NCBI GenBank assembly: GCA_020073665.1
Contig: JAIQEU010000007.1
Location: 129,001 to 193,000 of the forward strand
DNA length: 64,000 bases
Origin: Terriglobia bacterium
GTDB lineage: Bacteria; Acidobacteriota; Terriglobia; Terriglobales; Acidobacteriaceae
Direction: 5' to 3'
Positions 2,222-18,848 of this stretch are shown here, piece by piece (position 1 is the stretch's first letter; every line of letters begins with the position of its first letter). The notes under the pieces were generated by a model, which ran no database searches, was not told the origin of the DNA, and saw only the letters and a program-made list of their open reading frames with translations. A program made the position numbers and the translations under genes.

Positions 2222-2261
2222 AATTCCCGAAGCTCTGGCCAAACAAACGGACTTCCAACGT

Positions 2262-2402
2262 CGGCATTCTAGAGCACGCTCGTCATGGGACGAATCCAGC
2301 CAACCGGCATGGCTCACCCCCGAGTTGTTCTCGCAGAAAATTCAGCTGCTACTCTCGAATGTTGCGACATCTGTCATTCGATCAAGCATAGGAGTATCCC
2401 GC
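2262..2402 (+). pseudogene. Fossil of a casposase C-terminal HTH domain
   Basis: Translated in the frame that runs on into the HEPN gene, this stretch matches the C-terminal domain of the casposase at 9270-10817. 32 of 47 residues are identical to casposase residues 434-480, including shared strings QPAWLT, FSQ and IGVSR. The match stops at the Arg that ends IGVSR; the downstream part (YAGKVRQG...HPRHW in the intact protein) is missing, and nothing upstream resembles Cas1. It is therefore a detached fragment of a related but not identical casposase gene. It could alternatively be a recruited DNA-binding leader of the following ORF, but no start codon or ribosome-binding site supports that. 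Confidence 0.65.
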
Positions 2403-2465
2403 GTCACGGATTTAGTTGCTTCACAAGGGTTATACTGCGGCGAATCGCAGTGCCAAAATCCTGTG

Positions 2466-3844: not shown

Positions 3845-3952
3845 GCCCCGGCCTGGCCTACTAGCGCACGAATTCCGGCTAAACCCCAAACCTTGGCTGG
3901 CAGTCTAATTGGATGGAGGTGTGGCAGTTTTGCCGTCCTCTCCTTCCACCCC
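3845..3952 (+). repeat. Degenerate casposon right end abutting the target site
   Basis: This stretch has the same order of signals as the right end of the intact element. A subterminal motif at 3845-3867 (ccccggcctggcctact core) resembles 18561-18578. Then ttttgccgtc at 3928-3937 sits exactly 15 bp before the 14-bp target copy, the same spacing as ttttgccgtc at 18684-18693. Between that decamer and the target only 4 of 15 bases agree, so the end is diverged, not a recent copy. It is read as the right terminus of an older sister element that used the same target. The region 3822-4282 around it carries no convincing gene. Confidence 0.55.
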
Positions 3953-3966
3953 GTCCGCTGTTTGAC
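3953..3966 (+). repeat. Left target-site duplication, 14 bp
   Basis: gtccgctgtttgac, identical to 18709-18722 in direct orientation. It lies immediately outside the left terminal inverted repeat. Fourteen to fifteen bp is the duplication length reported for casposons and made by casposases in vitro. Confidence 0.93.
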
Positions 3967-4004
3967 GGGTATGTGTACAGCGACGGCAAAATGCTCCCTC
4001 CCCT
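3967..4004 (+). repeat. Left terminal inverted repeat, 38 bp
   Basis: Begins gggtatgtgtacagcgacgg and is the exact reverse complement of 18671-18708, with no mismatch in 38 positions. Identity stops inward at base 4005 except for scattered matches. This is the expected substrate of the casposase. Confidence 0.95.
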
Positions 4005-4020
4005 GGGCCGGACCCGCCCG

Positions 4021-4042
4021 CGAGTAGCCAGGCCGGGGCGCG
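4021..4042 (-). repeat. Left subterminal motif
   Basis: Read on the minus strand this gives cgccccggcctggctact, which closely resembles 3845-3867 (degenerate neighbouring end) and, less exactly, 18561-18578 (right end). At each end it lies inside the terminal repeat with the same orientation toward the terminus, at distances of roughly 55-150 bp. It could be a secondary binding site for the casposase or an element HTH protein; this is inference from position and repetition only. Confidence 0.5.
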
Positions 4043-4282
4043 CGCGCTAGTGAGCGGCGCGGAGCGGCGAGCGCCACAGCTTTGTGGCGTTTACTTAGCA
4101 ATCCACCCGTATGCTGGATGCTTGGGACCCCGTGGGGGATAGGGACCCACGAGGCTACAAACGAAGGGATTACCAACGTCCCGCGTGTGTTCGTTATTTG
4201 TAAAGGCTCCGAGGTTCAAGCACAGAGCTCTAGGAACGTAAGTATAATCGCTAGTTCGCTCTCACAAAGAAAAGAGGTGGAA

Positions 4283-5668
4283 ATGGCAACGGGTGAAGCT
4301 GAAACGATTGCCAAATTGCTTGAGGCTCTTACCGGTCAGCGTGCGCCGCTTTCCCAAGGGCTAGATCGAATTTCAAGTTTCCCTAAGACGGGTCTCGGCT
4401 ACAGCCAATTAAATGAACTCCTGCTGCTATTCGGATACGATCGAGTTACTCGCACATTCTTTCAGTTCCTCGCTGACGGGACGCTCGACTACAAACCGGG
4501 TTGCGCGATTCGATCAATCCAGGAATTTGAAACGGGAGTGGAGCGGGCTCGTCAACTGTCCCTCCTGTTCTTTGGAAACGTTAAGTTTGGTTTCAAGAAG
4601 TTCGCTCGCGATGCGGACGAATTGCGTTTTTACCACGCTTCGACTCAGCCAGTTAACGAAGAGATGCTCAAAAACCGACATGACGCTATTCATCCGGTGG
4701 ACCCGATTCCGTTGAATGAGACCTATTACCTTGGCTATGTGATTCAGAAGGAACTCAACGACAAGCTTGAGAAAAACCCACATGACGAGGTTGCGTTGGC
4801 TGCAAGAAAGGTGTTGGAGAGAGTTCGCGACAAGGGGATTCGCAATCAGCATGCCTACCTTGTTTCCGATCATCTGGACGTGTATGTGGCAACGTCAATG
4901 CGACGTAGGCATGAGTACGTTGAGGTTGCCCAGTTCGCCAACCAACTCTTCAACCATGACCTGATTAAAGACTTGAAGCTTCGCTGGTTCGACCCAACCC
5001 AAGCATACTGCGCGGATCGCATCGATAAGGGTTTGGCAGAGGCACTTATGCTGAAGCGAGCAAAGTGCACTCTTTATTTAGCGCAAGAATCCGATACGCT
5101 AGGCAAGGATTCTGAACTCGCATCCACGTTGGCCCAGGGAAAGCCTGTCATTGCTTACGTACCTTCGCCCACAGAATACGAAATTGTGGGTTCCGTTAAG
5201 AGTCTTTCGGCGCTTTACAGTCAGTCCGAATCGTCTGTCATCCTCGAACGACTTCAAGCTCTCTCCCCGAATCTCGCGTGGGAGAATCCCCAACTACGGC
5301 AATGGCTCGATGCGCCAGAAAAAGTGGACAGCAAGAGAGCCTTGGAACTGCTTGTGAAGACAGCCCAAGGACACTACGCGAGGCGAGCGGAAACACTAAG
5401 GGAAAGCCACCCTTTGGGAATTCAGGTGAATCTTGACACCGGCGTCGCAAATGGAGTCTTAGTGGTAAGGACATTAGAGGACTGCGCGAAGTTGATACAC
5501 AGAATTGTCACAACAACTCTACAGTTCAGCATCGAAAGGAAATCTATTGGGGATGTCGAGTACCACCTCCTTCGAGAGACGGTCTCAAACTCGATCTTCC
5601 GTGTCATGACCGGCGATGCTATGCTAACGAATAGTTTTTGGAATTTTTACCTGGAACCTTCAGACTAG
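4283..5668 (+). CDS. TIR/nucleoside-deoxyribosyltransferase-like protein, candidate effector
   Basis: 461 residues from the ATG at 4283, which has an AGAGGTGG ribosome-binding site; the open frame reaches back to 4082 but the early part overlaps the element terminus. The central part has the layout of the TIR/nucleoside 2-deoxyribosyltransferase fold: a first strand VYVATSM (about residues 200-206), a segment on a base-binding-like loop (WFDPTQAY), a strand CTLYLAQ, then a Glu (about residue 278, in DSELASTLAQGKPVIAY) at the position of the catalytic Glu of the family. The N-terminal 190 residues are not recognised. Such domains act as NADases or nucleotide-processing effectors in anti-phage systems; that role is inferred. 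It is the first cargo gene inside the left end, followed 10 bp later by a small ORF. It has no close named relative I can give. Confidence 0.6.
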   Translation: MATGEAETIAKLLEALTGQRAPLSQGLDRISSFPKTGLGYSQLNELLLLFGYDRVTRTFFQFLADGTLDYKPGCAIRSIQEFETGVERARQLSLLFFGNVKFGFKKFARDADELRFYHASTQPVNEEMLKNRHDAIHPVDPIPLNETYYLGYVIQKELNDKLEKNPHDEVALAARKVLERVRDKGIRNQHAYLVSDHLDVYVATSMRRRHEYVEVAQFANQLFNHDLIKDLKLRWFDPTQAYCADRIDKGLAEALMLKRAKCTLYLAQESDTLGKDSELASTLAQGKPVIAYVPSPTEYEIVGSVKSLSALYSQSESSVILERLQALSPNLAWENPQLRQWLDAPEKVDSKRALELLVKTAQGHYARRAETLRESHPLGIQVNLDTGVANGVLVVRTLEDCAKLIHRIVTTTLQFSIERKSIGDVEYHLLRETVSNSIFRVMTGDAMLTNSFWNFYLEPSD

Positions 5669-5678
5669 AGGCGCAAAT

Positions 5679-5855
5679 ATGAGCGAGAAACCGAAAAATC
5701 GGGTCAGTCCCTATGATCTTTGTGCGATGCATCGCAGCGCGTCTGGCGCCGAACTGAAGGCTCCATCTGTAATGCGACAGCCGTACACGCTCTCGTCTTC
5801 GCAGCGATTGAACAAATCGACAGTTGTGTTGCTCCGTACCAAGAAGTCCGCCTGA
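5679..5855 (+). CDS. Small hypothetical protein downstream of the TIR-like gene
   Basis: 58 residues, starting 10 bp after the stop of the TIR-like gene with a GAGGCG-like ribosome-binding sequence. It contains no recognised motif and is moderately basic. Tight spacing suggests cotranscription; the alternative is that it is a chance ORF at the edge of a GC-rich noncoding region. Confidence 0.35.
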   Translation: MSEKPKNRVSPYDLCAMHRSASGAELKAPSVMRQPYTLSSSQRLNKSTVVLLRTKKSA

Positions 5856-6242
5856 TCCGAGCAGAGAGGCGCGATCCCCGCGCACGCTGGCAAACACAAG
5901 CGCGCTCCTACGCGCGCGTGGGCCCCCGCCCTGCATCCTGTCTCGTTCCGGACCGGCCCAGGGGGAAGGCTTCCGGGGCATCCCTGTGTACTTAACAGTT
6001 AACGTGAGTGCGCCAAGCTAAGCGGGGCGCGAGGGAGGCGGGCCGAGGGCGGGCGGTATCGAAAAGGGTCACAAACACGCACTACTTGGTGGGCAACTTG
6101 TCGACGGCGTAATCTCATTTTTGGCGGGACGAATCGGAACAGGTTCTGACTGAAAAGCCAAGGCATCAATCTTGTTGTAGGCCAGCGTCTCGACGGTCAC
6201 TTCCAATATCAATGTTTCCCTGATAGAAATCAGACTCCAAGG
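5856..6242. other. GC-rich noncoding segment with terminus-like words
   Basis: No convincing gene. The stretch 5870-6060 is much richer in GC than the flanking cargo genes and contains ccggcccaggggg (5962-5974) followed by ctgtgtac (5985-5992). This echoes the left end read inward-out, where ccggcccagggg is followed by ctgtacac. Further on, gcggggcgcgag (6022-6033) echoes the subterminal motif. It may be the scar of an earlier insertion or end; the matches are short. The 3' part is AT-balanced and probably holds the promoter of the type IIG gene. Confidence 0.4.
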
Positions 6243-9140
6243 ATGGCTCTGCAACGCAATCGCGAAGAGGTCGTCAACACCCAACTGGCCATTCTCATTT
6301 CCAGTCTGGGAGTAACGGCTGATGCCGAAACCATTCACGTTCATGGTCAACATCGCCCGGACGTTCTGTTTCAACTTCGCGGCTTACGTGTTGTGCTTGA
6401 AGGGAAATTCGCGGACCATCCGAATGCGGAGCAAGTCGTCCTCGAGGATGCCCGCAGGCGGGTCCGCAGTGGTATTGCCCACATAGCCGCAGCGGTCGTC
6501 TATCCTGCCGCCCTTCGCAATACCCGCACCACCAAGATGCTTGAGGCTCTTCACAATACAGAACTCAAGTACCGGATAGTCGCTGAGACGCACGAAACCG
6601 AAGATTGGTTTGAAGGGAGGCCCGCTTCGCTGATGGATGCTCTCCGGCATTCGCAGGAAGCGCTTACGAAAGACGACATCGTTGAACAGACCGCGACATC
6701 CTTGTCTTTGCGGTTGGAAGGTGTCGCAAGACTGTGGATGGGGCAAAAAGGTGCGTGCGACCGATTGTCGGAAATCCTTGGGCTGACGCCTCCCAGGGGT
6801 GAAAAGCCGGAAAAGGCGGAAGATCGCCGGGAAACCGCAGCCAAGGTTTCCGCGCTTGTCTTAGCCAACGCTTTCATTTTTCAGGAACAACTTGCACAGA
6901 CGGATGGACGCGTCACATCCTTACGCAAACTCGATAAGTTTAAGGATCTTGTAGGGTCTACTGCCAAGCATTGGAATTGGATTTGGGAGAACATCAACTA
7001 TGTCCCGATTTTCCAGCTTGGCGAGAGAGTATTGAATGAGCTGCCAGCGAGCGGGAACTCCGAAATCGCAACGCGGGCGCTTCTGACGGAAGCGATTGAC
7101 ATTTGTTCGAAGCAAGCGGCCCTTCGGCATGACCTGATGGGCCGTATCTATCACTGGCTTCTGCACCACGCCAAATATCTCGGCACCTACTACACATCGG
7201 TTTCGGCTGCCACTCTGCTTTTGAAACTGACTATCGCAGCGAAATGGAAACAGGATTTTAGCAATCCCGCTGAGCTTGCGAATTTCAAAGTCGCTGATCT
7301 CGCCTGTGGCACCGGAACCCTTTTGATGGCAACAGCTCAAGCAATCTCCGACGCTTATATCACGGTTCGAGCAGAGCGAAATCTCTCGCTCGACACCAAG
7401 GACATGTCTACGTTGCATCGTGCCCTCATGGAGAATGTGCTGCACGGGTACGACGTTCTTCCGTCAGCAGTCCACTTAACTGCCTCAACCCTCGCGATGC
7501 TTGCACCGGACGTGGCCTTCGTGCGAATGGGATTATTTGTTATGCCGCTCGGAATGGACCATGGCATTGCCAAACTAGGCAGTTTGGATTTCCTGACAAG
7601 CGATTCGGTTAAGACCCAGATGGCGCTCGATTACTCTCACATCGAATCCATCCGCACCGGAGCAGGCTTTTCGCAGGCAACCACAGCGGAACTGCCCAAG
7701 CTGGACCTGTGTGTGATGAACCCGCCCTTTGTTCGGAGTGTAGGCGGCAACCTATTGTTTGGATCACTGCCGGACGAGCGGGGCGGACTTCAAGCAGAAT
7801 TGAAACGGCGTGTGGGACAAATCGGGGCGAGCGCGACCGCCGGATTAGGCAGTGTATTTGTCGCGTTAGCCGACCGATGGCTGAAAACTGGAGGACGCCT
7901 TGCCTTCGTACTTCCCGCTGCGGTTGCCTCCGGTGAGGCATGGGCAGAGACACGACAACTGATTTCGGACCGTTATCACCTGGAAACAGTGGTATCGAGT
8001 CATGATGCAGAGCGCCAGAATTTCTCGGAGAACACAGACATATCTGAGGTTTTATTCATTGCGAGAAAGCGTGAGGAGGAGGCCCCTCCCGGACGGACGG
8101 TCTATATCAACCTGTGCCGAAATCCCCGTTCAATCCACGAAGCAATTGACCTCGCGAACCGAATCGTCCAAGTGCATAAGCCTGTGACCGTTGAAGGGGA
8201 GGGTATCTCCGCGATCAGTGGTCCGAGTGGCAGACTTGGTGAGATGGTTTCGCTCCCGCCAGCAAGCGGAGAACAAAACTGGTGTGGTGCACTCTTCGCC
8301 CAGACTGAGCTATTGCGCATCTACCGGACACTTGAGGAAAAAGCGCTTCGCATCCCTGGCAAAGGGCAAATTGTAGAACTCTCTCTATGCAGGTTGGATT
8401 CTCTCGGCGCCCTTGGTCCAGATCGCAAGCGTATCAGCGAGGGATTCAAGGTGACGAGGGATGATTGGACTCCATATCCTGGCTTCTGGGGGAATGACTC
8501 GGCCCGAGATGTCACGATTCGGCAAAAGCCAAATGTCCAACTCGCTGCGTGGCTGGAATCGCCTCGGGGCCCAAATTACGGAGCACATTTGTGGGAAAGA
8601 GCAGGGCGCATACTGCTGGTTGAACGCCTTCGTCTAAACACGCACCGAGTTATCGCAATTGGTTTTGACGAGGAAGTACTTGCGAATGTGTGGTGGGCTT
8701 TTAAACCAGACGGACTCAACGCTGAGCAACAGAAGGCATTGCTTCTTTGGCTCAATAGTTCGTTGTCAATTCTGCTCTGCTTCGGTCGCCGGGTCGTCAC
8801 TCAAGGAGCTTGGACGCAGCTGAAGCAACCCGCGTGGCAGTCGATGCCGGTTCTGGATGTGCGTGCGCTTTCGTCCAAGAAACTGAAGGAGCTGGCGGCC
8901 ATCTACGACCATTTCTCAGTTGAAGACCTGAAAGCTCTCTCGCAACTCAAAACTGATGTTGTCCGTTTCGAGATCGACCTCGCGGTCCGCACAGCGCTAG
9001 GCATACCTGAACTGACGTTCGTTCGTGACTTACTGGATCGAGAACCGGGAATGACGGCTGTAGGTATCGCGACGCGAAACAATATTCCCGATGATGCCCC
9101 TGAAGATGAAGAGGAGGCCGAGGAGGCAGAACTATTTTGA
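6243..9140 (+). CDS. Type IIG restriction-modification enzyme (nuclease-adenine methyltransferase fusion)
   Basis: 965 residues. The N-terminus has a PD-(D/E)xK-type nuclease signature: Pro39-Asp40 followed by Glu53-Gly-Lys55 (RPDV...VVLEGKF). The centre is an N6-adenine methyltransferase: motif I DLACGTGT at residues 352-359 for S-adenosylmethionine binding and motif IV NPPF at 493-496 for catalysis. The C-terminal 300 residues are probably the target recognition domain. A single polypeptide that both cuts and methylates is the type IIG plan, and the length fits (about 900-1100). It would protect the host and the element from foreign DNA and may stabilise the element by post-segregational killing; both are inference. 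AAGG precedes the ATG. It is convergent with the casposase gene, 129 bp away. Confidence 0.85.
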   Translation: MALQRNREEVVNTQLAILISSLGVTADAETIHVHGQHRPDVLFQLRGLRVVLEGKFADHPNAEQVVLEDARRRVRSGIAHIAAAVVYPAALRNTRTTKMLEALHNTELKYRIVAETHETEDWFEGRPASLMDALRHSQEALTKDDIVEQTATSLSLRLEGVARLWMGQKGACDRLSEILGLTPPRGEKPEKAEDRRETAAKVSALVLANAFIFQEQLAQTDGRVTSLRKLDKFKDLVGSTAKHWNWIWENINYVPIFQLGERVLNELPASGNSEIATRALLTEAIDICSKQAALRHDLMGRIYHWLLHHAKYLGTYYTSVSAATLLLKLTIAAKWKQDFSNPAELANFKVADLACGTGTLLMATAQAISDAYITVRAERNLSLDTKDMSTLHRALMENVLHGYDVLPSAVHLTASTLAMLAPDVAFVRMGLFVMPLGMDHGIAKLGSLDFLTSDSVKTQMALDYSHIESIRTGAGFSQATTAELPKLDLCVMNPPFVRSVGGNLLFGSLPDERGGLQAELKRRVGQIGASATAGLGSVFVALADRWLKTGGRLAFVLPAAVASGEAWAETRQLISDRYHLETVVSSHDAERQNFSENTDISEVLFIARKREEEAPPGRTVYINLCRNPRSIHEAIDLANRIVQVHKPVTVEGEGISAISGPSGRLGEMVSLPPASGEQNWCGALFAQTELLRIYRTLEEKALRIPGKGQIVELSLCRLDSLGALGPDRKRISEGFKVTRDDWTPYPGFWGNDSARDVTIRQKPNVQLAAWLESPRGPNYGAHLWERAGRILLVERLRLNTHRVIAIGFDEEVLANVWWAFKPDGLNAEQQKALLLWLNSSLSILLCFGRRVVTQGAWTQLKQPAWQSMPVLDVRALSSKKLKELAAIYDHFSVEDLKALSQLKTDVVRFEIDLAVRTALGIPELTFVRDLLDREPGMTAVGIATRNNIPDDAPEDEEEAEEAELF

Positions 9141-9237
9141 ATTTTTCGCAAACTGGTATTTGTTGGATATTGCCATTGCTGGAAAAGACTACTTCCGCGC
9201 GGACAGAAAGCCTTACTGGTGGTGCTAGAAGTCGTAC

Positions 9238-9267
9238 AAAAATATACCGCGTGCTGTGGTTGCACGC
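9238..9267 (-). terminator. Probable intrinsic terminator of the casposase gene
   Basis: Read on the minus strand just past the casposase stop: stem gcgtgc, seven-base loop, gcacgc, then a U-rich run (ggtatattttt). The stem is only 6 bp, so strength is uncertain. Confidence 0.45.
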
Positions 9268-9269
9268 TG

Positions 9270-10817
9270 TTAAGAGTCAGTTGCTCGCCCGCCCTCCGAA
9301 ACGCCAACCAGTTTCGCCAGCGCCAGCCAATGCCTCGGATGCGGGCGGTAGCCTTGACGGACCTTGCCCGCGTACCAACGTGAGACACCAATCAGTGATC
9401 GAATAGCAGATGTTGGAAGGTTCGCGAGCAGCGGCTGGATTTGTTGCGAGAACACTTCGCTCGTAAGCCAAGCTGGTTGTCTCGAAGCGTCCCATGCCGA
9501 GCAGGCCTGGGCATGCCGTTGCCGCGAGGCTACATGTTTGGCACGAGCTCCCGTGCTTCGTGCAGCCACTCGGCCGAGGCTCGCGGCACTAATCAAGCGT
9601 TCCTTTGCTCCGCCAATGGCACAATCAGCGCAATTAGTGCGTCCGTTTCGGATAGTTTTCCCGCATCCGCGACAGACATTCTCTCTGCGTGGTGGTGAAA
9701 CTGGTGAAGGCAACGGCGACCCGCCTTTTGCCGCGCGTTTGTGGCGCTGAGTTAGGCGGGTAGGTAGTGCAGCACCGCTTGGTTTGCGCCTTCCCGACCA
9801 AAGTGTCCAGGCAATCCATTCAGCCATCGGTGCGACCGCGCGGCCCCAAGTTGGCGCTGTTACAGAAAGCTTGATTGCGAGCTGAGCCATGAGGCGGCAA
9901 TTCCCGTCTCGTCGCTCTAAAAACCATTCTCGCTTCAGGGGTTCACGCGTGATCCAATCGAGCAAAAACGCGTCCACCTGGGGCCGCACAGCCTCCATGA
10001 GATCACAAGCAAGGCTATCGCGAGCCGGGGCGTCTACGTGGAGAACTCCAATGCCAGGATCAAGGCCTAGAGCGGCAGCGGCTAACCGGGATTCACTTTC
10101 CAAGACTGCGTAAAGATAGTTGAGTATGGCATTCGGCGGGTTAACCGCTAGGCGAGGCGAGCCGGTTAAGGGCGATACGCGAGCGCCAAAAGAACGCCAG
10201 TGATCCGGCACGCGGGCCTCGTCCTTCCTTGGAAAAGTGATGGGCAATGTGCGCCATGCAGCCCAGTAAGCGCCAGCCGCCTTTGATTCAATTTGGCGAA
10301 TGGATTCGGGCGAGTCACTCATCTCCAATGCCGCCCGGCAGCGAGAAATTGCGTCGGCGGCTTGAGTTGCAAGCAATTTGTAGCGCGCAACCCGCTCCTG
10401 CCCCGCAAGCTTCCTGTCGATCAGTTCCCGAGCGATCAGGATGGCGGCTCCCGAGTGATGTGCCAGAGCCTGCGCGCGTCGAAGCCGGGCGTCGGACGGG
10501 TAAACCGGACCAGTGGTCAAGACTACGGCCCCGTCGCGCTGCAGCATGACGAAAGACGCCTTTTGGTCCGCCAGCCAGCGGAGAGCCTCCAGGGTAACGA
10601 GGCCGTCACTGCCGATCATGACCAGCCTCTTTAGGCCATGATTTACGCGTGGCAGTCGGATTGTCCGCCGCTCGTCGGCGATCCCATCGTGCAACAGGAG
10701 ATGGCCCGCGTGCATTTGGACGCGAATGCCATAACCAGCGAGGGTGAGGACGCCGTGCCGGGGTACCAGTGAATTGTGAGTTTGGGGAAGTTGGTATAGT
10801 TTTTTGGTAGCTGCCAT
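9270..10817 (-). CDS. Casposase: Cas1-family integrase with zinc ribbon and HTH
   Basis: 515 residues. Residues 1-340 are a complete Cas1: GLVTLEALRWLADQ beta-rich N-terminus, then the all-helical catalytic lobe. The metal-binding residues are present: Glu177 (IRQIESKAA), His260 (GVLHVD), Asp272 and Glu275 (CDLMEAVRP). Residues 382-399 form a CxxC-x10-CxxC zinc ribbon, and residues 435-500 a helix-turn-helix-like domain ending in HPRHW. A C-terminal HTH is typical of casposases and absent from ordinary CRISPR Cas1. Cas1 integrases join 3' ends to target DNA and make staggered duplications; here the expected substrates are the 38-bp ends. There is no cas2 or CRISPR nearby. The start has GGAGGA upstream. 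The gene is divergent from the replication module across about 150 bp. A host-domesticated Cas1-solo would be the alternative. Confidence 0.93.
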   Translation of the reverse strand: MAATKKLYQLPQTHNSLVPRHGVLTLAGYGIRVQMHAGHLLLHDGIADERRTIRLPRVNHGLKRLVMIGSDGLVTLEALRWLADQKASFVMLQRDGAVVLTTGPVYPSDARLRRAQALAHHSGAAILIARELIDRKLAGQERVARYKLLATQAADAISRCRAALEMSDSPESIRQIESKAAGAYWAAWRTLPITFPRKDEARVPDHWRSFGARVSPLTGSPRLAVNPPNAILNYLYAVLESESRLAAAALGLDPGIGVLHVDAPARDSLACDLMEAVRPQVDAFLLDWITREPLKREWFLERRDGNCRLMAQLAIKLSVTAPTWGRAVAPMAEWIAWTLWSGRRKPSGAALPTRLTQRHKRAAKGGSPLPSPVSPPRRENVCRGCGKTIRNGRTNCADCAIGGAKERLISAASLGRVAARSTGARAKHVASRQRHAQACSAWDASRQPAWLTSEVFSQQIQPLLANLPTSAIRSLIGVSRWYAGKVRQGYRPHPRHWLALAKLVGVSEGGRATDS

Positions 10818-10971
10818 TGGAGCATTCCTCCGATGGTGGTCAGGGCTTGTCGGCTGCTAGTAACAGACGGCAGGCCCGCTTGATACCGCTATCTCATTGT
10901 ACATCAACTAGATAGAAGATTCACGTGTAGAGTTTTGGTCCGACCATGTGTACTGTGGCCTAGGTAACAGA

Positions 10972-11757
10972 ATGAATCGCGCACATCTCCCCTACCGACA
11001 AGAATTCATATACACACAGGACCCCTTGCCGCATTCTGTCGCTTGGTTTAAATGGGAATTCCTCCGTCGAAATCCCGGCTATGGGCGTGACTACAAGAAA
11101 TTCAAAGTCAAGTTCGGGGAATGGTTCAGACAAAGAGGTTATTGGTACGACTACGATCGCCGACAAGATGAGTGGAGCGGGGTGGACGAAGACTATTTTT
11201 ACGATGAGATAGCACCTGAGATAGCCCGCCTTTGCCGAAAGTGGCAGATTGGGAATCTATTCCCTCCTAGCTGGCAATTCAGCAGGAAAAACGGAACCCG
11301 GAAGGTCGGCTCCCGGGAGCTTGGCCCGCCTACGGGGATCGCTCCCGAGTTGAATTGGGACGTCACCTACATGCAGCAACTACTTGAGATGGGGTTTACT
11401 GGTACAGCCGATTCGGCATTTCGGTATCGCAATATGCTGAGGGTGGAATTTGATTTGGACCGACCACTGAAGGATCTGGTGGAATACTCACGGTACGTCT
11501 TGATCCGGGCAATCGAAAACTACAAAAAAGAAGAGATGCAGGACCTAGGCTTCAAAACTCCGAAGAGCCGCCGTCGGTTAGAGGATTACGAGACGCACCT
11601 GAAGATTTGGGATCTCCGCAAAAAGAAAAAGACTGTGACGCAGATCGCCGAAATTGTTTTTCCTAATGAAATCCGAGACAGTGCGCTGCAGAAAGTTCGC
11701 GACCACCTCCGAGCAACCCAGAAACTGATCTCAGGCGGTTACGCAGAAATAAGGTGA
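10972..11757 (+). CDS. Regulator-like protein with predicted C-terminal HTH
   Basis: 261 residues from ATG 10972; a GTG at 10948 is also in frame. The N-terminal segment (AWFKWEFLRRNPGYGRDYKKF) resembles the transcriptional-regulator-like domain of DUF6499 proteins found on plasmids and integrative elements. The C-terminal 70 residues (about 190-261) are basic and contain TVTQIAEIVFP and a helix-rich end, suggestive of an HTH. It is transcribed divergently from the casposase, a classical position for a regulator of the integrase promoter, and leads the replication module. The function is inferred from context; I do not recognise a named family with certainty. Confidence 0.6.
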   Translation: MNRAHLPYRQEFIYTQDPLPHSVAWFKWEFLRRNPGYGRDYKKFKVKFGEWFRQRGYWYDYDRRQDEWSGVDEDYFYDEIAPEIARLCRKWQIGNLFPPSWQFSRKNGTRKVGSRELGPPTGIAPELNWDVTYMQQLLEMGFTGTADSAFRYRNMLRVEFDLDRPLKDLVEYSRYVLIRAIENYKKEEMQDLGFKTPKSRRRLEDYETHLKIWDLRKKKKTVTQIAEIVFPNEIRDSALQKVRDHLRATQKLISGGYAEIR

Positions 11758-11826
11758 CTCCCTTATATCTTCTAGATTCTTTTTGGGCCCCATGGAATTC
11801 TGTGGATGGTCCTGAAAGGTCTATAG

Positions 11827-12312
11827 ATGGTCGCCCGTCGCAATTCAAGCCAATCCAGGCTCTCCGAGCGCAGCTTCGCTGCCCGTGATCGTGCGTTGCA
11901 CGCTCTGGCTGATATGCGGCATGGTGCTTCCCCGTCCGAAGCAGCGCGCGACAATGGCGTAACCCTACGAACGATCAAGAAGTACGTCAACGCGGCGCTC
12001 GTACAAGATCGTCCGGGCGGACGACTACGGGCAACAAAGGCCGACCGCCTTGTTCGCTACGTGCAAATACCAGGTCCGATCGGTCCTGTTGAAATAAAAG
12101 TTCGCGGTTCGAAGCAGGCGACTGACGCCGCAAAATATAATGCAGCAGTCAGCAGGTTTCTAAGTGGCGATCTTAACGCCTTAGCTCCGTGGCATGGAAA
12201 GAAGATCGGTGGCGTCGACGTTATAACATCGGGAATTTTCCTTAAAAAGCTCGCCCAAAAGGAAGTTCTTCCGCATTCTCTCTACCGCGCCCTCTCCGGC
12301 GGTATAGCATGA
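11827..12312 (+). CDS. HTH protein of the replication module
   Basis: 161 residues. Residues about 33-53 (ASPSEAARDNGVTLRTIKKYV) form a clear helix-turn-helix of the resolvase/MarR-like linear type. The N-terminus is basic; the C-terminal half is not recognised. The stop codon overlaps the next start by 4 bp (ATGA), so it is translationally coupled to the HNH-like protein and the polymerase. Casposons regularly carry an HTH protein next to PolB. A role in binding ends, controlling copy number or repressing the operon is possible but unproven. Confidence 0.7.
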   Translation: MVARRNSSQSRLSERSFAARDRALHALADMRHGASPSEAARDNGVTLRTIKKYVNAALVQDRPGGRLRATKADRLVRYVQIPGPIGPVEIKVRGSKQATDAAKYNAAVSRFLSGDLNALAPWHGKKIGGVDVITSGIFLKKLAQKEVLPHSLYRALSGGIA

Positions 12313-12605
12313 GCGCCCCTCCCCAGTGCAAGAAGTGTACACGCCGATGCTGCGCTATTTGTGGATCAACCAAGGACGTCGAGGAACACCATCTGGGGGG
12401 ACGTAACCATGCTGCGTACTTCACAATTCCCCTCTGCCGCGTCCATCACGAGGCGGTCACCATCCTCATTGCACGGGCACGAGTAAGCATGCAGCCGACC
12501 AGTGATACAGCCGAACGTGCGAGGCTTGCGCGGCAGGCAGTATATGTTTTTCTCTGGTTTCTTGATGATGCAGTCACAGCTAATCCCAGGAGTAAAAAAG
12601 CATGA
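12309..12605 (+). CDS. Small HNH-like zinc protein
   Basis: 98 residues with CKKC and CAIC pairs near the N-terminus, then EEHHLGG and LCRVHHEAV. This is the Cys/His spacing of a compact HNH (beta-beta-alpha metal) nuclease: HH in the first strand and C..HH at the end. The middle Asn of a canonical HNH is replaced or displaced (GGRNHAAYF). Four-bp overlaps link it to both neighbours. An HNH nuclease is a recurrent component of casposons, where it may nick DNA during excision or repair; that role is inferred. Confidence 0.65.
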   Translation: MSAPPQCKKCTRRCCAICGSTKDVEEHHLGGRNHAAYFTIPLCRVHHEAVTILIARARVSMQPTSDTAERARLARQAVYVFLWFLDDAVTANPRSKKA

Positions 12606-12805
12606 CAAAACGAGTAAGAGTCGAGCACATCTTAATTGAAAAAGTCGAACTAGACTATGCCCGAACATTGTGCGGAAGAATCATCTATTACCCGGGAGCT
12701 ACCTTTGGCACCTACCCTAATTTGGATTACTTCAGGCACAATCATCCAGATTGCCAGGACTGTCTGCGGAAACACTTTCCCCCCGAACATAGGAGCCAAC
12801 GGTGA
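12602..12805 (+). CDS. Small Cys/His-containing protein, coupled to PolB
   Basis: 67 residues. The start (ATGA) and stop (GTGA) both overlap neighbours by 4 bp. The C-terminal part has HNHPDCQDC and an upstream Cys (TLCGRI), which could bind a metal. There is no recognised family. Strict translational coupling to the polymerase argues that it is real and functionally linked to replication, for example as an accessory or priming factor; this is speculation from position. Confidence 0.6.
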   Translation: MTKRVRVEHILIEKVELDYARTLCGRIIYYPGATFGTYPNLDYFRHNHPDCQDCLRKHFPPEHRSQR

Positions 12806-15720
12806 CGAGCGAAAAGCACGACATTTTTCTGCGGGCTCTTGCGGTTGCGCCCGACAAGAAGAAGCGCAAAGGTAGCACAGCTGCAGGAGATGATCCCAAG
12901 TGGCCAGAGATCGCGCTTGTATTTGACACTGAAACCCGCACCACAGCGGATCAGTCCCTGACCTTCGGCGTGTATCGGCTGTGCAAGCTAGTGGATGACA
13001 ATTACCTAGTCACAGAAGAGGGAATTTTCTGTGCTGACGATCTGCCCGCAAAAGATCGCAAGGCGCTGGACAATTACATGGGTAGCGCAGTTTCCGATGT
13101 GGCATCCTTTCCGCCACGATTCCCGCTATACTCCCGCTCCGAGTTCATGAAACGAGTGTTCTGGCCAGCGATAAAGTACCAGGGAGCGCTGGTAGTGGGG
13201 TTCAACCTGCCGTTCGACTTGGCGCGCCTCGCGCTCGATTGGACTAGAGGCGACAAAGACGAATGGTCGCTGACGATGTCGCAGTATCCAGACGGAACAG
13301 AAAATCGGAATTATCCCCGCGTAACAATTCAACCAATCGACAGCAAGAAGGCGTTCATCAAGCTGGTGCCGCCATGGAAGCCAGCGGAATGGAAAGACAA
13401 AGGCATGGCGCATTTCCTCGATCTGCGGACCCTCGCATGGGCGCTATACAACCAATCGTTTTCGCTCAGGACACTCTGCGAAGAACTGAAAACCGAACAT
13501 AAGAAACTGGACCATGAGCCAACCGGGAAGGTGACTCCTGAAGAAATCGACTATGCCCGGCAGGACGGGCGCTGTACCGTGGACGCACTCAACGAGTTAA
13601 AACGGGAATTCGACCAGCACCCCATCGGCCTCAAACCCTACAACGCATACTCCCCCGCATCGGTGGCCAAATCCTACCTGGATCAAATGGGAATCATCCC
13701 GCCAGAGGGGAAGTTCGATGTCCCCGATGAAATACTCGGCATTGCCATGCAGGGCTATTACGGCGGCCGCTCTGAAACCCGCATACGCGGCTCAGAGGTG
13801 CCCGTCGTGCCTGTGGATTTTACCAGCGAATATCCAAGCTGCTGCGCTCTCTTGGGCCTGTTCGATGTCCTGACAGCCGAGAGCGTGAGCTTTGACGATG
13901 ATACCGAGAATGTGCGTAGATTCCTGAACCGCACCACTCTTGATGGCTGCTTTGAGCCTGCGGTGTGGGAGTGCTACCGTTTCTTTGCCCTCGTGAAGCC
14001 CGATGACGACATCCTGCCCGTGCGCGCCGTGTACAACCAGGTCACCCAGAACATCGGTAACAACTATCTCACGTCCGACACGCCGCTGTGGTTTGCTGGC
14101 CCCGACCTGATTGCATCCGTGATCCGAACTGGCAGGGTACCACACATCCTCCGGGCTATCCGCATGGTACCGCACGGCAAGCAAGCCGGAATGCGGAGTG
14201 TAAACCTTCGAGGCATGGTTGAGATTGATCCGTACCAGGATGATCTATTCTGCAGAGTAATCGAACAACGTAAACTGCACAAAGCAGACGAAGCGCTTTA
14301 CTACTGGCTCAAGATCTTTGCGAATTCCATCTATGGCTTCTTCGTTGAACTGAATCCCGAAATAGAGAATGGCAATGTAGCGGTCAAAGTGTTCTCGGGA
14401 GAGAAGACTTTTACCGATAATTCGGATGTGATCGAGAAACCAGGAGCGTGGTTCTTTCCGCCCTTAGCTTCCCTTATTACGTCTGGCGGTCGCCTACTGC
14501 TCGCCATGACAGAAGCGTGTGTAGAGGAAAAGAAAGGAACATATCTTTTTTGCGACACGGATTCGCTCGCAATCGTAGCCTCTAAAAAGGGCGGACCGCT
14601 TCATATCCCAGGCAGCAAAGGTGTCCTGATTCTCTCGTGGGCCCAAGTGCAGGCCATCGTCCATAAATTTGCTGCGTTGAATCCCTATGATCGCAGGATT
14701 GTGAAAGGTTCAATCCTGAATCTCGTGGACGCGAACTACGCTGACTCAGACCCAAAAAACCCGCAGCGCCAGTTGTACGGGTACAGCATCGCAGCGAAGC
14801 GCTATACCCTGTACGTAAGGATAGGCCAGAACGACATCAAGATCATTGATCCGAAGGCGCACGGCATCGGCTTCCTGTATCCGCCCAAGGATTCCCCGAA
14901 GGACTGGGAAGAAGCTGTGCCGCAGTGGATTTACGAAATGTGGGACCACATCGTACGGGGCGCACTAAAGCTAAAGCGCAAGAAACCGTCCTGGCTCAAT
15001 CTCCCTCAAATGATGCGCCTGACCATCACTACGTACAATGTTTTGGAAATGCTTGGGGAATGGAAAATCGCTCGCCCGTACAATTTTCTTCTTTTGCCGA
15101 TGGTTGATCCAACCTTTGGCTATGCGTTTTACAGGCGTGCAAATGAAAAAGTCCTGCTCATAACCGAATTCTCATCCAAGCAGGACCGCTGGTTTGACAT
15201 GAAATGCGTAAACATTCATAGCGGCAAGAAGTACAAAATGGTGGATTGCACAAAAGAGACAAATCCTCCGTACAACGTGGTGTTTCCATCACAATTCGCG
15301 CGCCTCTTGATCGAGTACCAGGAGCATCCCGAAGCCAAGAGCCTCGCGCCCGACGGTAGCCCATGCGAGGCAGGCACGCGCGGACTACTACAGCGTGCGC
15401 ACGTCACAGCCGGGGAGTTTCGCTACGTGGGCAAGGAAACAGATCGCAAGTGGGAAGAGGGTGACGACATCTCCGTTTTGGAGTTCAAGACTACCGAGTA
15501 CGGTAGATCGAAAAAAGTACTTGCAAGCGAGGAAGTCAAGAACGGTATCAAGAAAATTGGCATCAACAAATGCGCTCGCGAGAGTGGATTTGATCGCAAG
15601 AATTTCGTTAGAAAAGTAGTTCGAGATATTCCCGTGAAACGTAAGTCGTACGATGAATTTGTGCGCTGGCTTCACGCCTACAAATCACACGCCAGTGCCG
15701 GGGAAGGGATTCTGAAATGA
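12802..15720 (+). CDS. Family-B DNA polymerase of the casposon
   Basis: 972 residues from a GTG start overlapping the previous gene. The 3'-5' exonuclease has Exo I DxE (Asp42, Glu44 in VFDTET), Exo II NxxFD (Asn135-Asp139) and Exo III YxxxD (Tyr251-Asp255). Polymerase motifs: A DFTSEYPS at 339-346, B KIFANSIYG at 504-512, C CDTDS at 584-588, and a thumb KRY at 666-668. Motif A has Glu where the usual DxxSLYP has Leu, an oddity of the subfamily. The last 250 residues are not standard; the end (INKCARESGFDRKNF region) looks HTH-like. Family-B polymerases are rare in bacterial chromosomes outside polB and phages; with Cas1 and terminal repeats this is the self-synthesis module. Whether it is protein- or RNA-primed cannot be told here. 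Confidence 0.92.
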   Translation: MTSEKHDIFLRALAVAPDKKKRKGSTAAGDDPKWPEIALVFDTETRTTADQSLTFGVYRLCKLVDDNYLVTEEGIFCADDLPAKDRKALDNYMGSAVSDVASFPPRFPLYSRSEFMKRVFWPAIKYQGALVVGFNLPFDLARLALDWTRGDKDEWSLTMSQYPDGTENRNYPRVTIQPIDSKKAFIKLVPPWKPAEWKDKGMAHFLDLRTLAWALYNQSFSLRTLCEELKTEHKKLDHEPTGKVTPEEIDYARQDGRCTVDALNELKREFDQHPIGLKPYNAYSPASVAKSYLDQMGIIPPEGKFDVPDEILGIAMQGYYGGRSETRIRGSEVPVVPVDFTSEYPSCCALLGLFDVLTAESVSFDDDTENVRRFLNRTTLDGCFEPAVWECYRFFALVKPDDDILPVRAVYNQVTQNIGNNYLTSDTPLWFAGPDLIASVIRTGRVPHILRAIRMVPHGKQAGMRSVNLRGMVEIDPYQDDLFCRVIEQRKLHKADEALYYWLKIFANSIYGFFVELNPEIENGNVAVKVFSGEKTFTDNSDVIEKPGAWFFPPLASLITSGGRLLLAMTEACVEEKKGTYLFCDTDSLAIVASKKGGPLHIPGSKGVLILSWAQVQAIVHKFAALNPYDRRIVKGSILNLVDANYADSDPKNPQRQLYGYSIAAKRYTLYVRIGQNDIKIIDPKAHGIGFLYPPKDSPKDWEEAVPQWIYEMWDHIVRGALKLKRKKPSWLNLPQMMRLTITTYNVLEMLGEWKIARPYNFLLLPMVDPTFGYAFYRRANEKVLLITEFSSKQDRWFDMKCVNIHSGKKYKMVDCTKETNPPYNVVFPSQFARLLIEYQEHPEAKSLAPDGSPCEAGTRGLLQRAHVTAGEFRYVGKETDRKWEEGDDISVLEFKTTEYGRSKKVLASEEVKNGIKKIGINKCARESGFDRKNFVRKVVRDIPVKRKSYDEFVRWLHAYKSHASAGEGILK

Positions 15721-16655
15721 TCTATTTAGTTCAAAGATTGATTCTGAATCAGTACGCGTGGACGAAACCGTCGCCTGGACGGATTGGGGCCGCCGGAGAA
15801 GGCGACTATGTCAAAGAGAACGGCTTCGGCCATGAAGATTGGAATTTCAATTACGAGCTTGCGATCGCCGACCATATCTTTGGGTACGCCTATTACGAAC
15901 CAATCTCTGACAAAAAAGCAGAACTCTTTCAATTTGTCTTCGCCACCTACCAGTCCTCAAGGTGGTATTTGGCAGGATTTTACCTGGACACAACTTTTGC
16001 TCCCGACGGCCCTCCCCCTGACAGCAGAGTTCTAAAGGAGAAGGCGCGCCATCTCTTGGAGCTGAAAGCACTGAACAGTCTCGGAAAACCGTGGTCGAGC
16101 CTGACAGAAGCTGAAATTATTCGTAAATTGGAGAAAGAAGCACGTTGGCTCCGTTGGAAGGTTCGTGTTAAGAACGCAATTCGCCTTCCGGTGCCCATTG
16201 AAATTCCTCATCGCATCTATAACACGAGGAACTATCATCTCACCAGACCTCAGGGAATCAGTCGCTCCACGTTCGATGCATTGCGGCAGCTTTCAAATAA
16301 AACTGTTCTTCCCGAAGACGATGATGAGGCCGCGTTTCCCGAAGGACGCGAGCTGTTCCTGAAGCACCGGGCGCGAGAGAGGAATCCTGCCGTCGTTCGA
16401 CACGCCAAAACCCTTTTTTTGCGAAGACACGGGAGATTCTTCTGCCAGGCTTGTGGTTTTGACTTTGAAAGAGTCTACGGCGAATTGGGCCGTGGGGTCA
16501 TCGAGGCTCACCACACAACCCCCGTTAGTGAGTTGTCTAGTGGTGCAAAGACCAAGGTGAGTGACATAGCGCTGATCTGTCCGAACTGCCATCGAATGGT
16601 GCACCGAAAAAGGCCATGGCTGACGATCAATCAATTGCAAACCATTTTGAAGTGA
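15717..16655 (+). CDS. HNH endonuclease coupled to the casposon polymerase
   Basis: 312 residues; the ATGA start overlaps the PolB stop. The C-terminal 75 residues are a canonical McrA-like HNH: CQAC (about 243-246), EAHHTTPVSEL, DIALICPNCHRMVH. The catalytic His pair, the CxxC zinc sites and the final His are all present. The N-terminal 230 residues are not recognised and may bind DNA. Last gene of the five-gene replication operon. HNH nucleases near PolB are a repeated feature of casposons; possible jobs are donor-strand processing, target bias or restriction of modified DNA. Confidence 0.85.
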   Translation: MIYLVQRLILNQYAWTKPSPGRIGAAGEGDYVKENGFGHEDWNFNYELAIADHIFGYAYYEPISDKKAELFQFVFATYQSSRWYLAGFYLDTTFAPDGPPPDSRVLKEKARHLLELKALNSLGKPWSSLTEAEIIRKLEKEARWLRWKVRVKNAIRLPVPIEIPHRIYNTRNYHLTRPQGISRSTFDALRQLSNKTVLPEDDDEAAFPEGRELFLKHRARERNPAVVRHAKTLFLRRHGRFFCQACGFDFERVYGELGRGVIEAHHTTPVSELSSGAKTKVSDIALICPNCHRMVHRKRPWLTINQLQTILK

Positions 16656-17052
16656 AAAGGCGCAAAACTATCCCGCCCTTGTCCGCGACGGACGGCGGAC
16701 TCCAGTCGTTTTTGTTCATCATGTGCTCACACCAGGTGCAGAACGGTGATGACTCCAACTCCTCTGGTTGGAAGAACAAACAGAGATGAAGGACTAGTTT
16801 TAAAAAGTTCGTTCTCGATACGAAAACAACCCAAAAGAGAGTGGACCGAAGACAAGACACCGTTTGTCCACATTCCTTTGGTGACATTAGGGCAGGCGGC
16901 CATGTAGATTCAGGCGCGCCGCACGCCCCGTGCTTTAAACCGATCCGCCGTGCTGGGGCGGACTCAAGCAGCCGTCAACCCCAGTTCAAAGGAATCTTGC
17001 TCTTTTCCTTTAAATAGGATGTAATTATAGGCAACAGGAACCTAATGTCAGT
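16656..17052. other. Intergenic gap inside the element
   Basis: No convincing gene. A weak stem (gtccgc 16681-16686 with gcggac 16695-16700, then tccagtcgttttt) may end the polymerase operon. AT-rich tttaaatagg and ttatagg at about 17010-17035 could be the promoter of the RHH gene. I saw no tRNA or CRISPR-like repeat. Confidence 0.4.
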
Positions 17053-17271
17053 ATGCGCCGCAAGAATCCAGTTCGTACCGAGAGAGCACAGCTTTCCCTC
17101 TCCGACACGACGAACAGCGTCCTTGAACAGTTGGCCCAGATCGGAATTCTAGGCAAGACGAAGGCAGAGATTGCTACTCGCATCGTGACGGACTGGATTT
17201 GGCAAAACGAGGACCGGCTACTACGACAAGGAATCACACTTCGTCGAAATCGTAACAAGGGGAAAAGATGA
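17053..17271 (+). CDS. Ribbon-helix-helix-like small DNA-binding protein
   Basis: 72 residues. A basic N-terminus precedes QLSLSDTTNSVLEQLAQIGILGKTKAEIATRIVTDWI: a strand, then two helices separated by a Gly/Lys turn, the layout of CopG/Arc repressors. Such proteins regulate transposon, plasmid or toxin-antitoxin genes. The stop overlaps a 25-codon ORF by 4 bp. Specific operator sites are not identifiable. Confidence 0.6.
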   Translation: MRRKNPVRTERAQLSLSDTTNSVLEQLAQIGILGKTKAEIATRIVTDWIWQNEDRLLRQGITLRRNRNKGKR

Positions 17272-17345
17272 TGTTTGCAGGTGTAGGAAAACTTGGAATT
17301 AAGGCTAGTTTTCCAAATCCGGTGGAAATCTTTGCGTGGACGTGA
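17268..17345 (+). CDS. Micro-ORF overlapping the RHH gene
   Basis: 25 codons beginning at the ATGA overlap with the RHH stop. There is no motif. Coupling is the only evidence; it may be a chance ORF or a small partner peptide. Confidence 0.25.
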   Translation: MMFAGVGKLGIKASFPNPVEIFAWT

Positions 17346-17399
17346 ACGATTCCGAGATGTTAAAAGAAAAACCTCGCTAGGACGGGTTTAATTGGGGAG

Positions 17400-17582
17400 A
17401 TGATGATGGCCGAGAACAAGCAGACAACACTGAGCCCAGCTGAATGGAAATCCAATAGTGATTATCTAATGGAGCTTAGCAAGCGGGTGGAGAAGGCGAC
17501 GTCCTCCCAGCAGCAGATGTCGGCACAGCATGGGAATGGTACTGAGCCCCAAAACCCACCGCAGGACTTAAAAAGCAATTGA
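17400..17582 (+). CDS. Small hydrophilic hypothetical protein
   Basis: 60 residues starting MMMAENKQ with a GGGGAG ribosome-binding site. It is polar, with Gln/Ser/Asn-rich composition and a disordered C-terminus. There is no recognised domain. It sits between the RHH protein and the HAD phosphatase on the same strand. The good ribosome-binding site supports expression. Confidence 0.45.
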   Translation: MMMAENKQTTLSPAEWKSNSDYLMELSKRVEKATSSQQQMSAQHGNGTEPQNPPQDLKSN

Positions 17583-17642
17583 CTTGACTCACTTGCCAAA
17601 TGTCACCTAGACTGCCGCCACTTTCCCATAGTGGGTCGGCAC

Positions 17643-18539: not shown

Positions 18540-18560
18540 CCAACCTTCGCTTCCTCGCCC

Positions 18561-18578
18561 CGCCCCGGCTACTGCGCC
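18561..18578 (+). repeat. Right subterminal motif
   Basis: cgccccggctactgcgcc resembles the motifs at 4021-4042 (minus strand) and 3845-3867 and is oriented the same way toward the terminus. It lies 93-110 bp inside the right terminal repeat. It is shorter than the others by a missing ctgg block. Confidence 0.45.
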
Positions 18579-18670
18579 CTGCGCCCGCCAGACCCCGCTC
18601 ACGACCCACTAGCGTCGCGCCTTAGGCCCTTCTCCCGTACGAGCAGCTAGTCCCTCGGAGCCCGAAAGGC

Positions 18671-18837: not shown

Positions 18838-18848
18838 GAGCTGATTTC

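What the first reader, a model, noticed from the sequence alone, without database searches (positions are those of the whole stretch)
9270..10817. Casposase with zinc ribbon plus HTH and no cas2 or CRISPR
Glu177, His260, Asp272 and Glu275 match Cas1 metal-binding positions; a CxxC-x10-CxxC ribbon and an HTH follow. The fusion is not part of CRISPR Cas1 and gives a ready way to read the terminal repeats. Many bacterial Cas1 proteins annotated as CRISPR may belong to this class.
Basis: partly seen in the sequence, partly recalled or inferred. Interest (0 to 1): 0.8.

Follow-up and report, generated by a model that had tools for sequence, protein, structure and literature searches.

The report
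Casposon inserted at a housekeeping promoter
The Cas1-like gene belongs to a complete mobile element (a casposon) of soil Acidobacteria that appears to insert exactly at the -35 box of host promoters and leaves those promoters intact, building tandem arrays that resemble what is proposed for the origin of CRISPR arrays.

Summary
In detail: ORF 9270-10817(-) is a 515-aa Cas1 homologue with E177/H260/D272/E275, a CxxC-x10-CxxC ribbon and an HTH; the genome has no Cas2 match. Its architecture (Cas1, zinc-binding, HTH) is already in print for the bacterial casposon AceAut-C1. The gene lies in a complete 14,742-bp casposon (3967-18708) with perfect 39-nt terminal repeats, a 14-bp target duplication, a PolB with all motifs, and defence-like cargo. 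Relatives occur in 46 of 398 family genomes (own included). I delimited 32 elements. In 22 of 32 a sigma70-like promoter (TTG-box, 16-18 nt, TAnnnT) abuts exactly one end, the duplicated 14 bp ending in the -35 box. Target genes include valS, thrS, tRNA-Gln, tRNA-Ala and rplU. Three relatives have empty tRNA-Gln sites; one joins the flanks across a single target copy. Twelve of the 22 have another casposon end on the far side: tandem arrays. Casposon identity is firm; promoter targeting is strongly supported statistically, with 5 of 32 elements not fitting; what reads the promoter (tail, Cas1 or RNA polymerase) is inference. New variant of a known kind.

The parts
3967..18708 (.). complete casposon, 14,742 bp
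   Evidence: 39-nt perfect terminal inverted repeats and exact 14-bp direct repeats
3967..4005 (+). left terminal inverted repeat (GGGTATGTGTACAGCGACGGCAAAATGC...)
   Evidence: 100% complementary to 18670-18708 (pair I2, which adds three bases of the duplication on each side)
18670..18708 (-). right terminal inverted repeat
3953..3966 (+). target-site duplication, distal copy GTCCGCTGTTTGAC
18709..18722 (+). target-site duplication, promoter-side copy, ends in TTGAC of the -35 box
18718..18747 (+). sigma70-like promoter TTGACC-18-TAATAT upstream of valS
   Evidence: only promoter-like site found in 18600-18860; the motif also stands upstream of valS in relatives without an element end
18849..21695 (+). 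valS, valine--tRNA ligase (flanking host gene)
   Evidence: NCBIfam TIGR00422/NF004349
9270..10817 (-). casposase: Cas1 domain (aa 60-311), zinc ribbon, HTH
9621..9674 (-). CxxC-x10-CxxC ribbon (C382-C399)
   Evidence: Cys invariant in the 21-row alignment
9306..9461 (-). C-terminal HTH (aa 453-504, PHPRHW motif)
12802..15720 (+). family B DNA polymerase, 972 aa, exonuclease and polymerase motifs intact
   Evidence: motifs conserved; PF03175 in 6 of 11 aligned PolBs, best 2.5e-8, while the window copy alone reaches only PF00136 at 0.066; PolB fold
15717..16655 (+). HNH endonuclease; no homologue of this one found in the related loci
   Evidence: PF01844 2.5e-8; none at 1e-10 in 48 loci
11827..12312 (+). 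HTH-like protein (Pfam matches below cut-off), conserved beside polB in many relatives
12309..12605 (+). small protein, weak RecA_dep_nuc match (below cut-off), conserved beside polB in some relatives
10948..11757 (+). RovC/Trans_reg-like DNA-binding protein (below cut-off), rare in relatives
6243..9140 (+). cargo: N6 DNA methyltransferase, weak type II/IIG and MAD2 matches (defence-like)
17631..18539 (+). cargo: HAD-like protein, PADLOC candidate defence PDC-S34
   Evidence: 1.3e-55
4082..5668 (+). cargo of unknown function (84% identical homologue in the G424C53 casposon)
   Evidence: no Pfam or PADLOC match; homologue
3923..3952 (-). terminal-repeat end of an older, decayed neighbouring element abutting the distal target copy
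   Evidence: leave-one-out repeat profile score 11.7, 99.9% null threshold 2.1; its other end not found
2223..2405 (+). remnant of a casposase tail (57% identity to residues 421-481)

Best explanation
The gene encodes the integrase (casposase) of a casposon that was inserted at the promoter of valS. Shown by sequence: the element boundaries, the 14-bp duplication, the promoter motif at the junction, the same arrangement in many relatives, and empty sites at another target. Inferred, by analogy with the M. mazei and A. boonei casposases: the casposase joins the CCC-3' ends of the excised element to both strands of a 14-bp target, and PolB replicates or repairs the element. Target choice is two-part: a motif at the target border (GTCAA = -35 box) and a second motif ~19-25 nt into the flank (-10 box). 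Because the duplicated 14 bp carry the -35 box, the promoter is rebuilt at each insertion, the host gene stays expressed, and the site can be used again, giving tandem arrays. The ribbon-HTH tail is the most likely reader of one of these DNA elements (inference; not tested).
For: 32 elements with exact 14-bp duplications were delimited; 31 of 32 begin GGG and end CCC; no hit in shuffled sequence in the scan. 22 of 32 have a promoter (TTGnn, 16-18 nt, TAnnnT) on exactly one side and none on both. At 15 unique target loci, TTGAC ends the target in 10 (null 0.00185 per site, p=1.4e-24), and TAnnnT at spacer 17 or 18 occurs in 10 of 15; 8 of 10 TTGAC loci against 92 of 2333 background (p=2.5e-10) or 51 of 325 intergenic, targets included (p=1.2e-5). 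Repeat ends found by pattern searches: of 18 not used to find the rule, 8 abut a promoter in register, 5 abut a target copy as expected for a far or mid-array end, 5 do not fit. Empty tRNA-Gln site in G549: its upstream sequence matches the far flanks of G094 and G163 (98 and 99 of 114 identical) right up to a single target copy. valS promoter motifs with no element end beside them exist in 7 of 16 loci. M. mazei needs CGCA at the target border and flank bp 12-17 (PMC6977970).
Against: 5 of 32 elements have neither a promoter nor another element at either end: two in G631 have no TTGAC, one (G485, TTGTC) lies in an outer-membrane-protein ORF, and two (G541, G088) have TTGAC but no TAnnnT at the right spacing. 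At two relatives' valS sites the element end sits 1 or 3 nt out of register, and at two more it looks like an end but scores below threshold. The base next to the 14-bp copies also matches in 18 (before) and 15 (after) of 32, more than a quarter, so some duplications could be counted longer; many neighbours are themselves CCC/GGG ends. Promoters are inferred from sequence; no transcript data. No activity was tested. A tandem array would look the same whichever target copy was reused, so promoter-proximal insertion is not proven.
Confidence: 0.87

Rival explanations
1. The integrase reads only the TTGAC border motif; the -10 boxes appear because insertions elsewhere were lost by selection.
For: TTGAC is the strongest signal in the column statistics; insertions upstream of a promoter should be harmless.
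Against: Among intergenic TTGAC sites only 51 of 325 have TAnnnT at 16-18 nt, against 8 of 10 targets. TAnnnT occurs at spacer 17 or 18 in 10 of 15 loci and once each at spacers 3, 22 and 26. One locus has TTGCG and one TTGAG, yet both keep the -10 box.
Confidence: 0.12
2. RNA polymerase or sigma70 bound at the promoter recruits the casposase, rather than direct DNA reading by the casposase.
For: Target = promoter anatomy; variable -10 sequence and 17/18 spacing are what sigma tolerates (general knowledge).
Against: M. mazei and A. boonei casposases find a two-part DNA site with no partner in vitro (PMC6977970, PMC6614799).
Confidence: 0.3
3. A CRISPR-adaptation Cas1 that lost its array, or a host-domesticated Cas1.
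For: Profile hits to Cas1 models (PF01867 and TIGR00287 above their cut-offs; subtype models below theirs); best PDB sequence match is 4n06, A. fulgidus Cas1.
Against: Terminal repeats, duplication, PolB, variable insertion sites and empty sites; no Cas2 in the genome; separate clade.
Confidence: 0.02
4. A decayed element: the window copy is no longer mobile.
For: Neighbouring remnants and a second casposase split over two frames in the genome; many relatives are truncated.
Against: Perfect terminal repeats and target copies, uninterrupted casposase and PolB in the window copy.
Confidence: 0.2

Closest known systems
Family 3 (bacterial) casposons, in particular AceAut-C1 (Krupovic et al. 2014, PMC4046053: sections 5, 7, 9 and passages read)
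   Same: bacterial host; Cas1 with zinc-binding domain and HTH fused at the C-terminus; PolB; HNH and HTH genes; family 3 said to be intergenic (PMC6614799 passage)
Methanosarcina mazei casposon/casposase (6opm; PMC6977970 passages; tandem arrays per PMC9939771 and PMC10359463 passages)
   Same: 14-bp duplication, two-part target (border motif plus a flank motif), CCC-3' element ends, C-terminal HTH, tandem arrays, gene left intact
   Different: target is the 3' end of tRNA-Leu, not a promoter; the word zinc does not occur in the main text of PMC6977970
Aciduliprofundum boonei casposon (PMC6614799 passages)
   Same: 14-15 bp duplication, leader motif required
   Different: target adjoins the tRNA-Pro gene; leader motif TCAAATC, critical positions -14 to -9
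CRISPR Cas1-Cas2 integration at the leader-repeat junction (general knowledge)
   Same: homologous enzyme; fixed flank plus duplicated repeat gives an array
   Different: no Cas2, no crRNA array; here the promoter reads away from the array
Tn7 (as discussed in PMC4046053); yeast Ty1/Ty3 near tRNA promoters (recalled)
   Same: safe-site, gene-sparing insertion near housekeeping genes
   Different: unrelated enzymes; not at sigma70 promoters

Membership tests
Casposon superfamily | cas1 without cas2 or CRISPR array | tested here: met
   Cas2 0 hits in own genome (control rings in 7 of 14 genomes); no CRISPR-like repeats in the window (the rest of the genome was not scanned for arrays); the only other PF01867 match in the genome is a second casposase-like copy
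Casposon superfamily | Cas1 catalytic residues conserved | tested here: met
Casposon superfamily | family B DNA polymerase in the element | tested here: met
   single-sequence and 3-row PDB searches found nothing
Casposon superfamily | terminal inverted repeats | tested here: met
   39 nt, 100%
Casposon superfamily | target-site duplication (median 15 in the 2014 set; 14 in M. mazei) | tested here: met
   14 bp exact in the window and in 32 of 32 delimited elements; the later scans searched for 14
Casposon superfamily | Cas1 groups with known casposases rather than CRISPR Cas1 | tested here: inconclusive
   apart from 28 other Cas1 rows, with the M. mazei casposase on its side (96/84), but A. 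fulgidus Cas1 4n06 is on that side too, the M. mazei branch is long and the root is a midpoint
Casposon superfamily | integration activity | not testable with these tools
   needs purified protein; the empty site in a relative shows past mobility of this family
Family 3 casposons | bacterial host, and the C-terminal ZBD+HTH of AceAut-C1 (not universal in family 3) | tested here: met
   Acidobacteria; AceAut-C1 description from PMC4046053
Family 3 casposons | same Cas1 clade as AceAut-C1, NitAL212-C1, StrAlb-C1, HenMar-C1 | not tested
   those sequences were not obtained
CRISPR-Cas adaptation module | linked cas2 and array | tested here: not met

The most novel reading that the evidence does not exclude
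This clade of casposases has made the bacterial sigma70 promoter its target: the tail and Cas1 domain together read the -35 and -10 boxes (or the polymerase on them), so that essential-gene promoters act as permanent 'leaders' from which tandem arrays of 14-bp repeats and defence-carrying elements grow. It would be a living, bacterial version of the leader-repeat-array logic proposed for the birth of CRISPR.
Probability: 0.4. Interest if true: 0.9.

Novelty: new variant of a known kind. Interest (0 to 1): 0.76.

Why it matters
Casposon targets named in the papers I read are tRNA 3' ends, an elongation-factor gene and unspecified intergenic sites. A clade whose target is a promoter, with the -35 box inside the duplicated segment, gives a precise and testable rule for site choice by a Cas1 homologue. 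It explains why insertion is harmless and repeatable, and supplies natural leader-repeat-element arrays in bacteria for testing how a casposon site could have become a CRISPR leader. It also shows casposons as carriers of restriction-modification and candidate defence genes in soil Acidobacteria.

Tried and rejected
CRISPR-adaptation Cas1: rejected (no Cas2; no array in the window; element boundaries). TIR of 42 nt as first reported: rejected, because three bases at each end belong to the 14-bp duplication. Insertion linked to tRNA genes only: rejected; 8 of 29 flanks have a tRNA within 4 kb, 7 of them ~100 bp downstream, but valS, thrS, rplU, a kinase and a radical SAM gene also occur. Promoter-proximal polarity of array growth: the window fits (intact element next to valS, decayed end beyond), but arrays would look alike either way, so not claimed. 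Left end of the older element in the window contig: not found. Extension to other phyla: Solirubrobacterales L213 and Chloroflexi L214 and L217 have no detectable pair of ends. Plasmids: 15 records match, none over 80% of the query; the 12 listed are annotated as CRISPR Cas1. Viral contigs: one weak hit. PolB by single-sequence or 3-row PDB search: no hit; resolved by relatives, motifs and fold. Foldseek on the whole casposase shows only Cas1 folds in the 50 rows listed of 403, so the tail's nearest fold was not determined.

Counts and dropped rows: one search lists 76 match rows; only a part was fetched. The region set (comb2) is the window plus 44 other loci, one of them from the own genome (C49); all 45 have a cas1 match. 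28 elements came from the scan and one (G084C10), which that scan missed; these 29 lie in 27 of the 45 loci, the other 18 gave no pair of ends (short contigs or decay, not sorted further). Three more came from G463 (two) and L195. Four mid-array elements were left out of the 15 unique loci. Of the 18 'new' ends, one (G306 valS) had been seen, the two G369 ends share one promoter sequence, several are valS again, and the four G463 ends belong to the two G463 elements later counted in the 32. L213 and L214 entered the tree twice. Site occupancy was first judged by eye and then scored, which lowered it: tRNA-Gln 7 of 11 occupied, 1 unclear (G155), 3 empty; valS 5 of 16 in register, 2 shifted by 1 or 3 nt, 2 below threshold, 7 without.

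Full report
Observation. The ORF at 9270-10817(-) is real and as described: 515 aa, Cas_Cas1 4.7e-38 over residues 60-311. The catalytic residues and the four ribbon cysteines are conserved in the 21-row alignment and the 28-row alignment (the latter includes Solirubrobacterales L213 and a partial Chloroflexi row). AlphaFold2 (28 sequences; mean pLDDT 76, pTM 0.58) gives a Cas1 fold, a ribbon, two long helices and a four-helix HTH. Foldseek ranks A. fulgidus Cas1 and the M. mazei casposase 6opm at the top. By sequence profile the same two lead (4.5e-29 and 1.6e-28), and 6opm is matched from profile position 24, including an N-terminal 'GYGI...RGHL..DG' region.

The element. The symmetrical boundaries are 3967-18708, with GGGTATG... 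at both ends and the same 14 bp, GTCCGCTGTTTGAC, outside each end. Inside are a PolB with exonuclease and polymerase motifs, recognised as DNA_pol_B_2 in 6 of 11 aligned copies (best 2.5e-8; the window copy itself only weakly) and by fold, an HNH nuclease (not found in the relatives), HTH-like proteins, and cargo: an N6 methyltransferase and a PDC-S34 HAD protein. Other elements carry a type III methyltransferase with a weaker type III restriction match, Vsr plus a C5-type methyltransferase, or a methyltransferase with a protein matching type II restriction models (10 proteins scanned; four had no match). The genome has no Cas2; its only other Cas1 match is a second casposase-like copy split over two frames, with a partial PolB match nearby.

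Distribution and kinship. Matches at E<=1e-25 occur in 46 of 398 genomes of the same family, own included. In a phylum sample, 8 of 396 genomes match the alignment at E<=1e-50, 7 of them of that family. Of 54 named loci, most are Acidobacteria (Acidobacteriaceae, Terriglobia and others), among them Edaphobacter strains; one is Solirubrobacterales, two Chloroflexi, one an uncultured bacterium, and five are distant Cas1 at 29-33% identity in other groups. In the tree the casposase-like rows form one 100/100 clade apart from 28 other Cas1 rows; the M. mazei casposase and A. fulgidus Cas1 fall on the same side with long branches, so the deep placement is unsure.

Targets. A scan for paired ends in 45 loci found 28 elements, all with zero mismatches in the 14-bp copies although two were allowed, and none in mononucleotide-shuffled controls. 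With G084C10, two elements in G463 and L195 there are 32; lengths 1.8-17.2 kb, and 31 of 32 have GGG...CCC ends. Oriented the same way, the 14-bp copies mostly end in TTGAC, followed outside by 17-18 nt and TAnnnT: a sigma70-like promoter. TTGAC is exact at 10 of 15 unique loci (p=1.4e-24). TAnnnT at spacer 17 or 18 occurs at 10 of 15, and at the other offsets from 2 to 39 three times in all. The comparison holds against intergenic TTGAC sites (8 of 10 against 51 of 325). The promoter scan tool independently finds one site in 18600-18860: TTGACC-18-TAATAT at 18718-18747. Downstream genes: valS at 6 of 29 flanks, tRNA-Gln at 6 and tRNA-Ala at 1, thrS, rplU, a Ser/Thr kinase, a radical SAM gene, a GAF protein and an FG-GAP protein. 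G485 lies in an outer-membrane-protein ORF and does not fit.

Tests on ends not used to find the rule. L195 fits (TTGACG-17-TAGCCT). A pattern for one end type in 200 family genomes gave 21 matches against 3 for the reversed control. With one new hit, 18 ends were not used before: 8 abut a promoter in register, 5 abut a target copy as expected for a far or mid-array end, 5 do not fit; they are not all independent loci (see Tried and rejected). A junction pattern in 17 loci gave 5 matches against a mean of 0.7 in block shuffles; three of the five (L195 again, and two in L210) look genuine.

Empty sites. The tRNA-Gln promoter motif was found in 11 of 62 genomes of the genus of G233 (Edaphobacter, judged from matching contig lengths). 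Scored with the repeat profile, 7 have an element end at the expected place, 1 is unclear and 3 have none. In G549, one of the three, the upstream sequence aligns to the far flanks of the G094 and G163 elements (98 and 99 of 114 identical) up to a single target copy. Of 30 valS loci, 16 show the TTGACC motif by my pattern; 5 score as element ends in register, 2 when shifted by 1 or 3 nt, 2 look like ends but score below threshold, and 7 have none. So the promoter precedes the element and is not part of it.

Arrays. Of the 22 elements with a promoter at one end, 12 have the end of another element at the other, scored by a leave-one-out repeat profile; five more elements have an element end on at least one side and no promoter. 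In G320C12 and G084C27 three identical target copies separate two delimited elements, and in G601C1 three copies are also seen. The window itself shows an older end at 3923-3952 next to the far target copy, plus a casposase-tail remnant at 2223-2405. Tandem insertion is already known for M. mazei (PMC9939771, PMC10359463). What I did not find in print is promoter targeting.

How it likely works. Reported for other casposases: 14-15 bp duplication, a border motif and a flank motif 9-17 nt away, an HTH domain without which no integration was seen, and, in M. mazei, ends in CCC (PMC6977970, PMC6614799). Here the border motif is the -35 box and the second motif, 19-25 nt away, is the -10 box. Inferred: the tail or the Cas1 domain reads these boxes, or the polymerase presents them. 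The duplication rebuilds the -35 box beside the promoter, sparing the gene and leaving the site open to reuse.

Literature. Searches covered casposons, casposons with promoters and tandem insertion, casposons with Acidobacteria, bacterial casposons, and recent years, in the held open-access library only. Krupovic et al. 2016 and 2017 are not held, so a mention there cannot be excluded. Read: passages plus sections 5, 7 and 9 of PMC4046053; passages plus section 11 of PMC9939771; passages of PMC6977970, PMC6614799, PMC10359463 and PMC7305122.

Changes on checking: occupancy counts were re-scored, the count of match rows was corrected, and confidence went from 0.88 to 0.87 because some relatives' ends are out of register.

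Noticed in passing
window 2002-2044 and 2159-2201: 43-nt inverted repeat (98% complementary) around a ~200-bp unit beside the older casposon remnant; possibly a small palindromic mobile element.
   Followed up: no
L210 846(-) and 13874(+): Both sides of one casposon-bearing contig show an element end followed by a valS-type promoter; a duplication or rearrangement is possible.
   Followed up: no
G631C4 and G631C13 elements (L121-L124): Targets without TTGAC; TATACT or TACACT lies 8-9 nt from one target end instead of ~18, as if a different register of the promoter were used.
   Followed up: partly
G463:C58 (L269 18767 to 20573 across L269/L270): 1.8-kb element in the middle of an array with the same end type as a 12.7-kb element in the same genome; likely non-autonomous.
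   Followed up: partly
L026 (G265): 201-aa open frame that matches only the casposase HTH tail; remnant or stand-alone use of the domain.
   Followed up: no
window 12802-15720, PolB residues ~910-967: C-terminal helices of the PolB model look HTH-like by eye, as reported for PolB of family 2 casposons.
   Followed up: no
G000:C16:92086: Another casposon end (GTCAA target copy) elsewhere in the window's own genome; its partner end was not found in 40 kb.
   Followed up: partly
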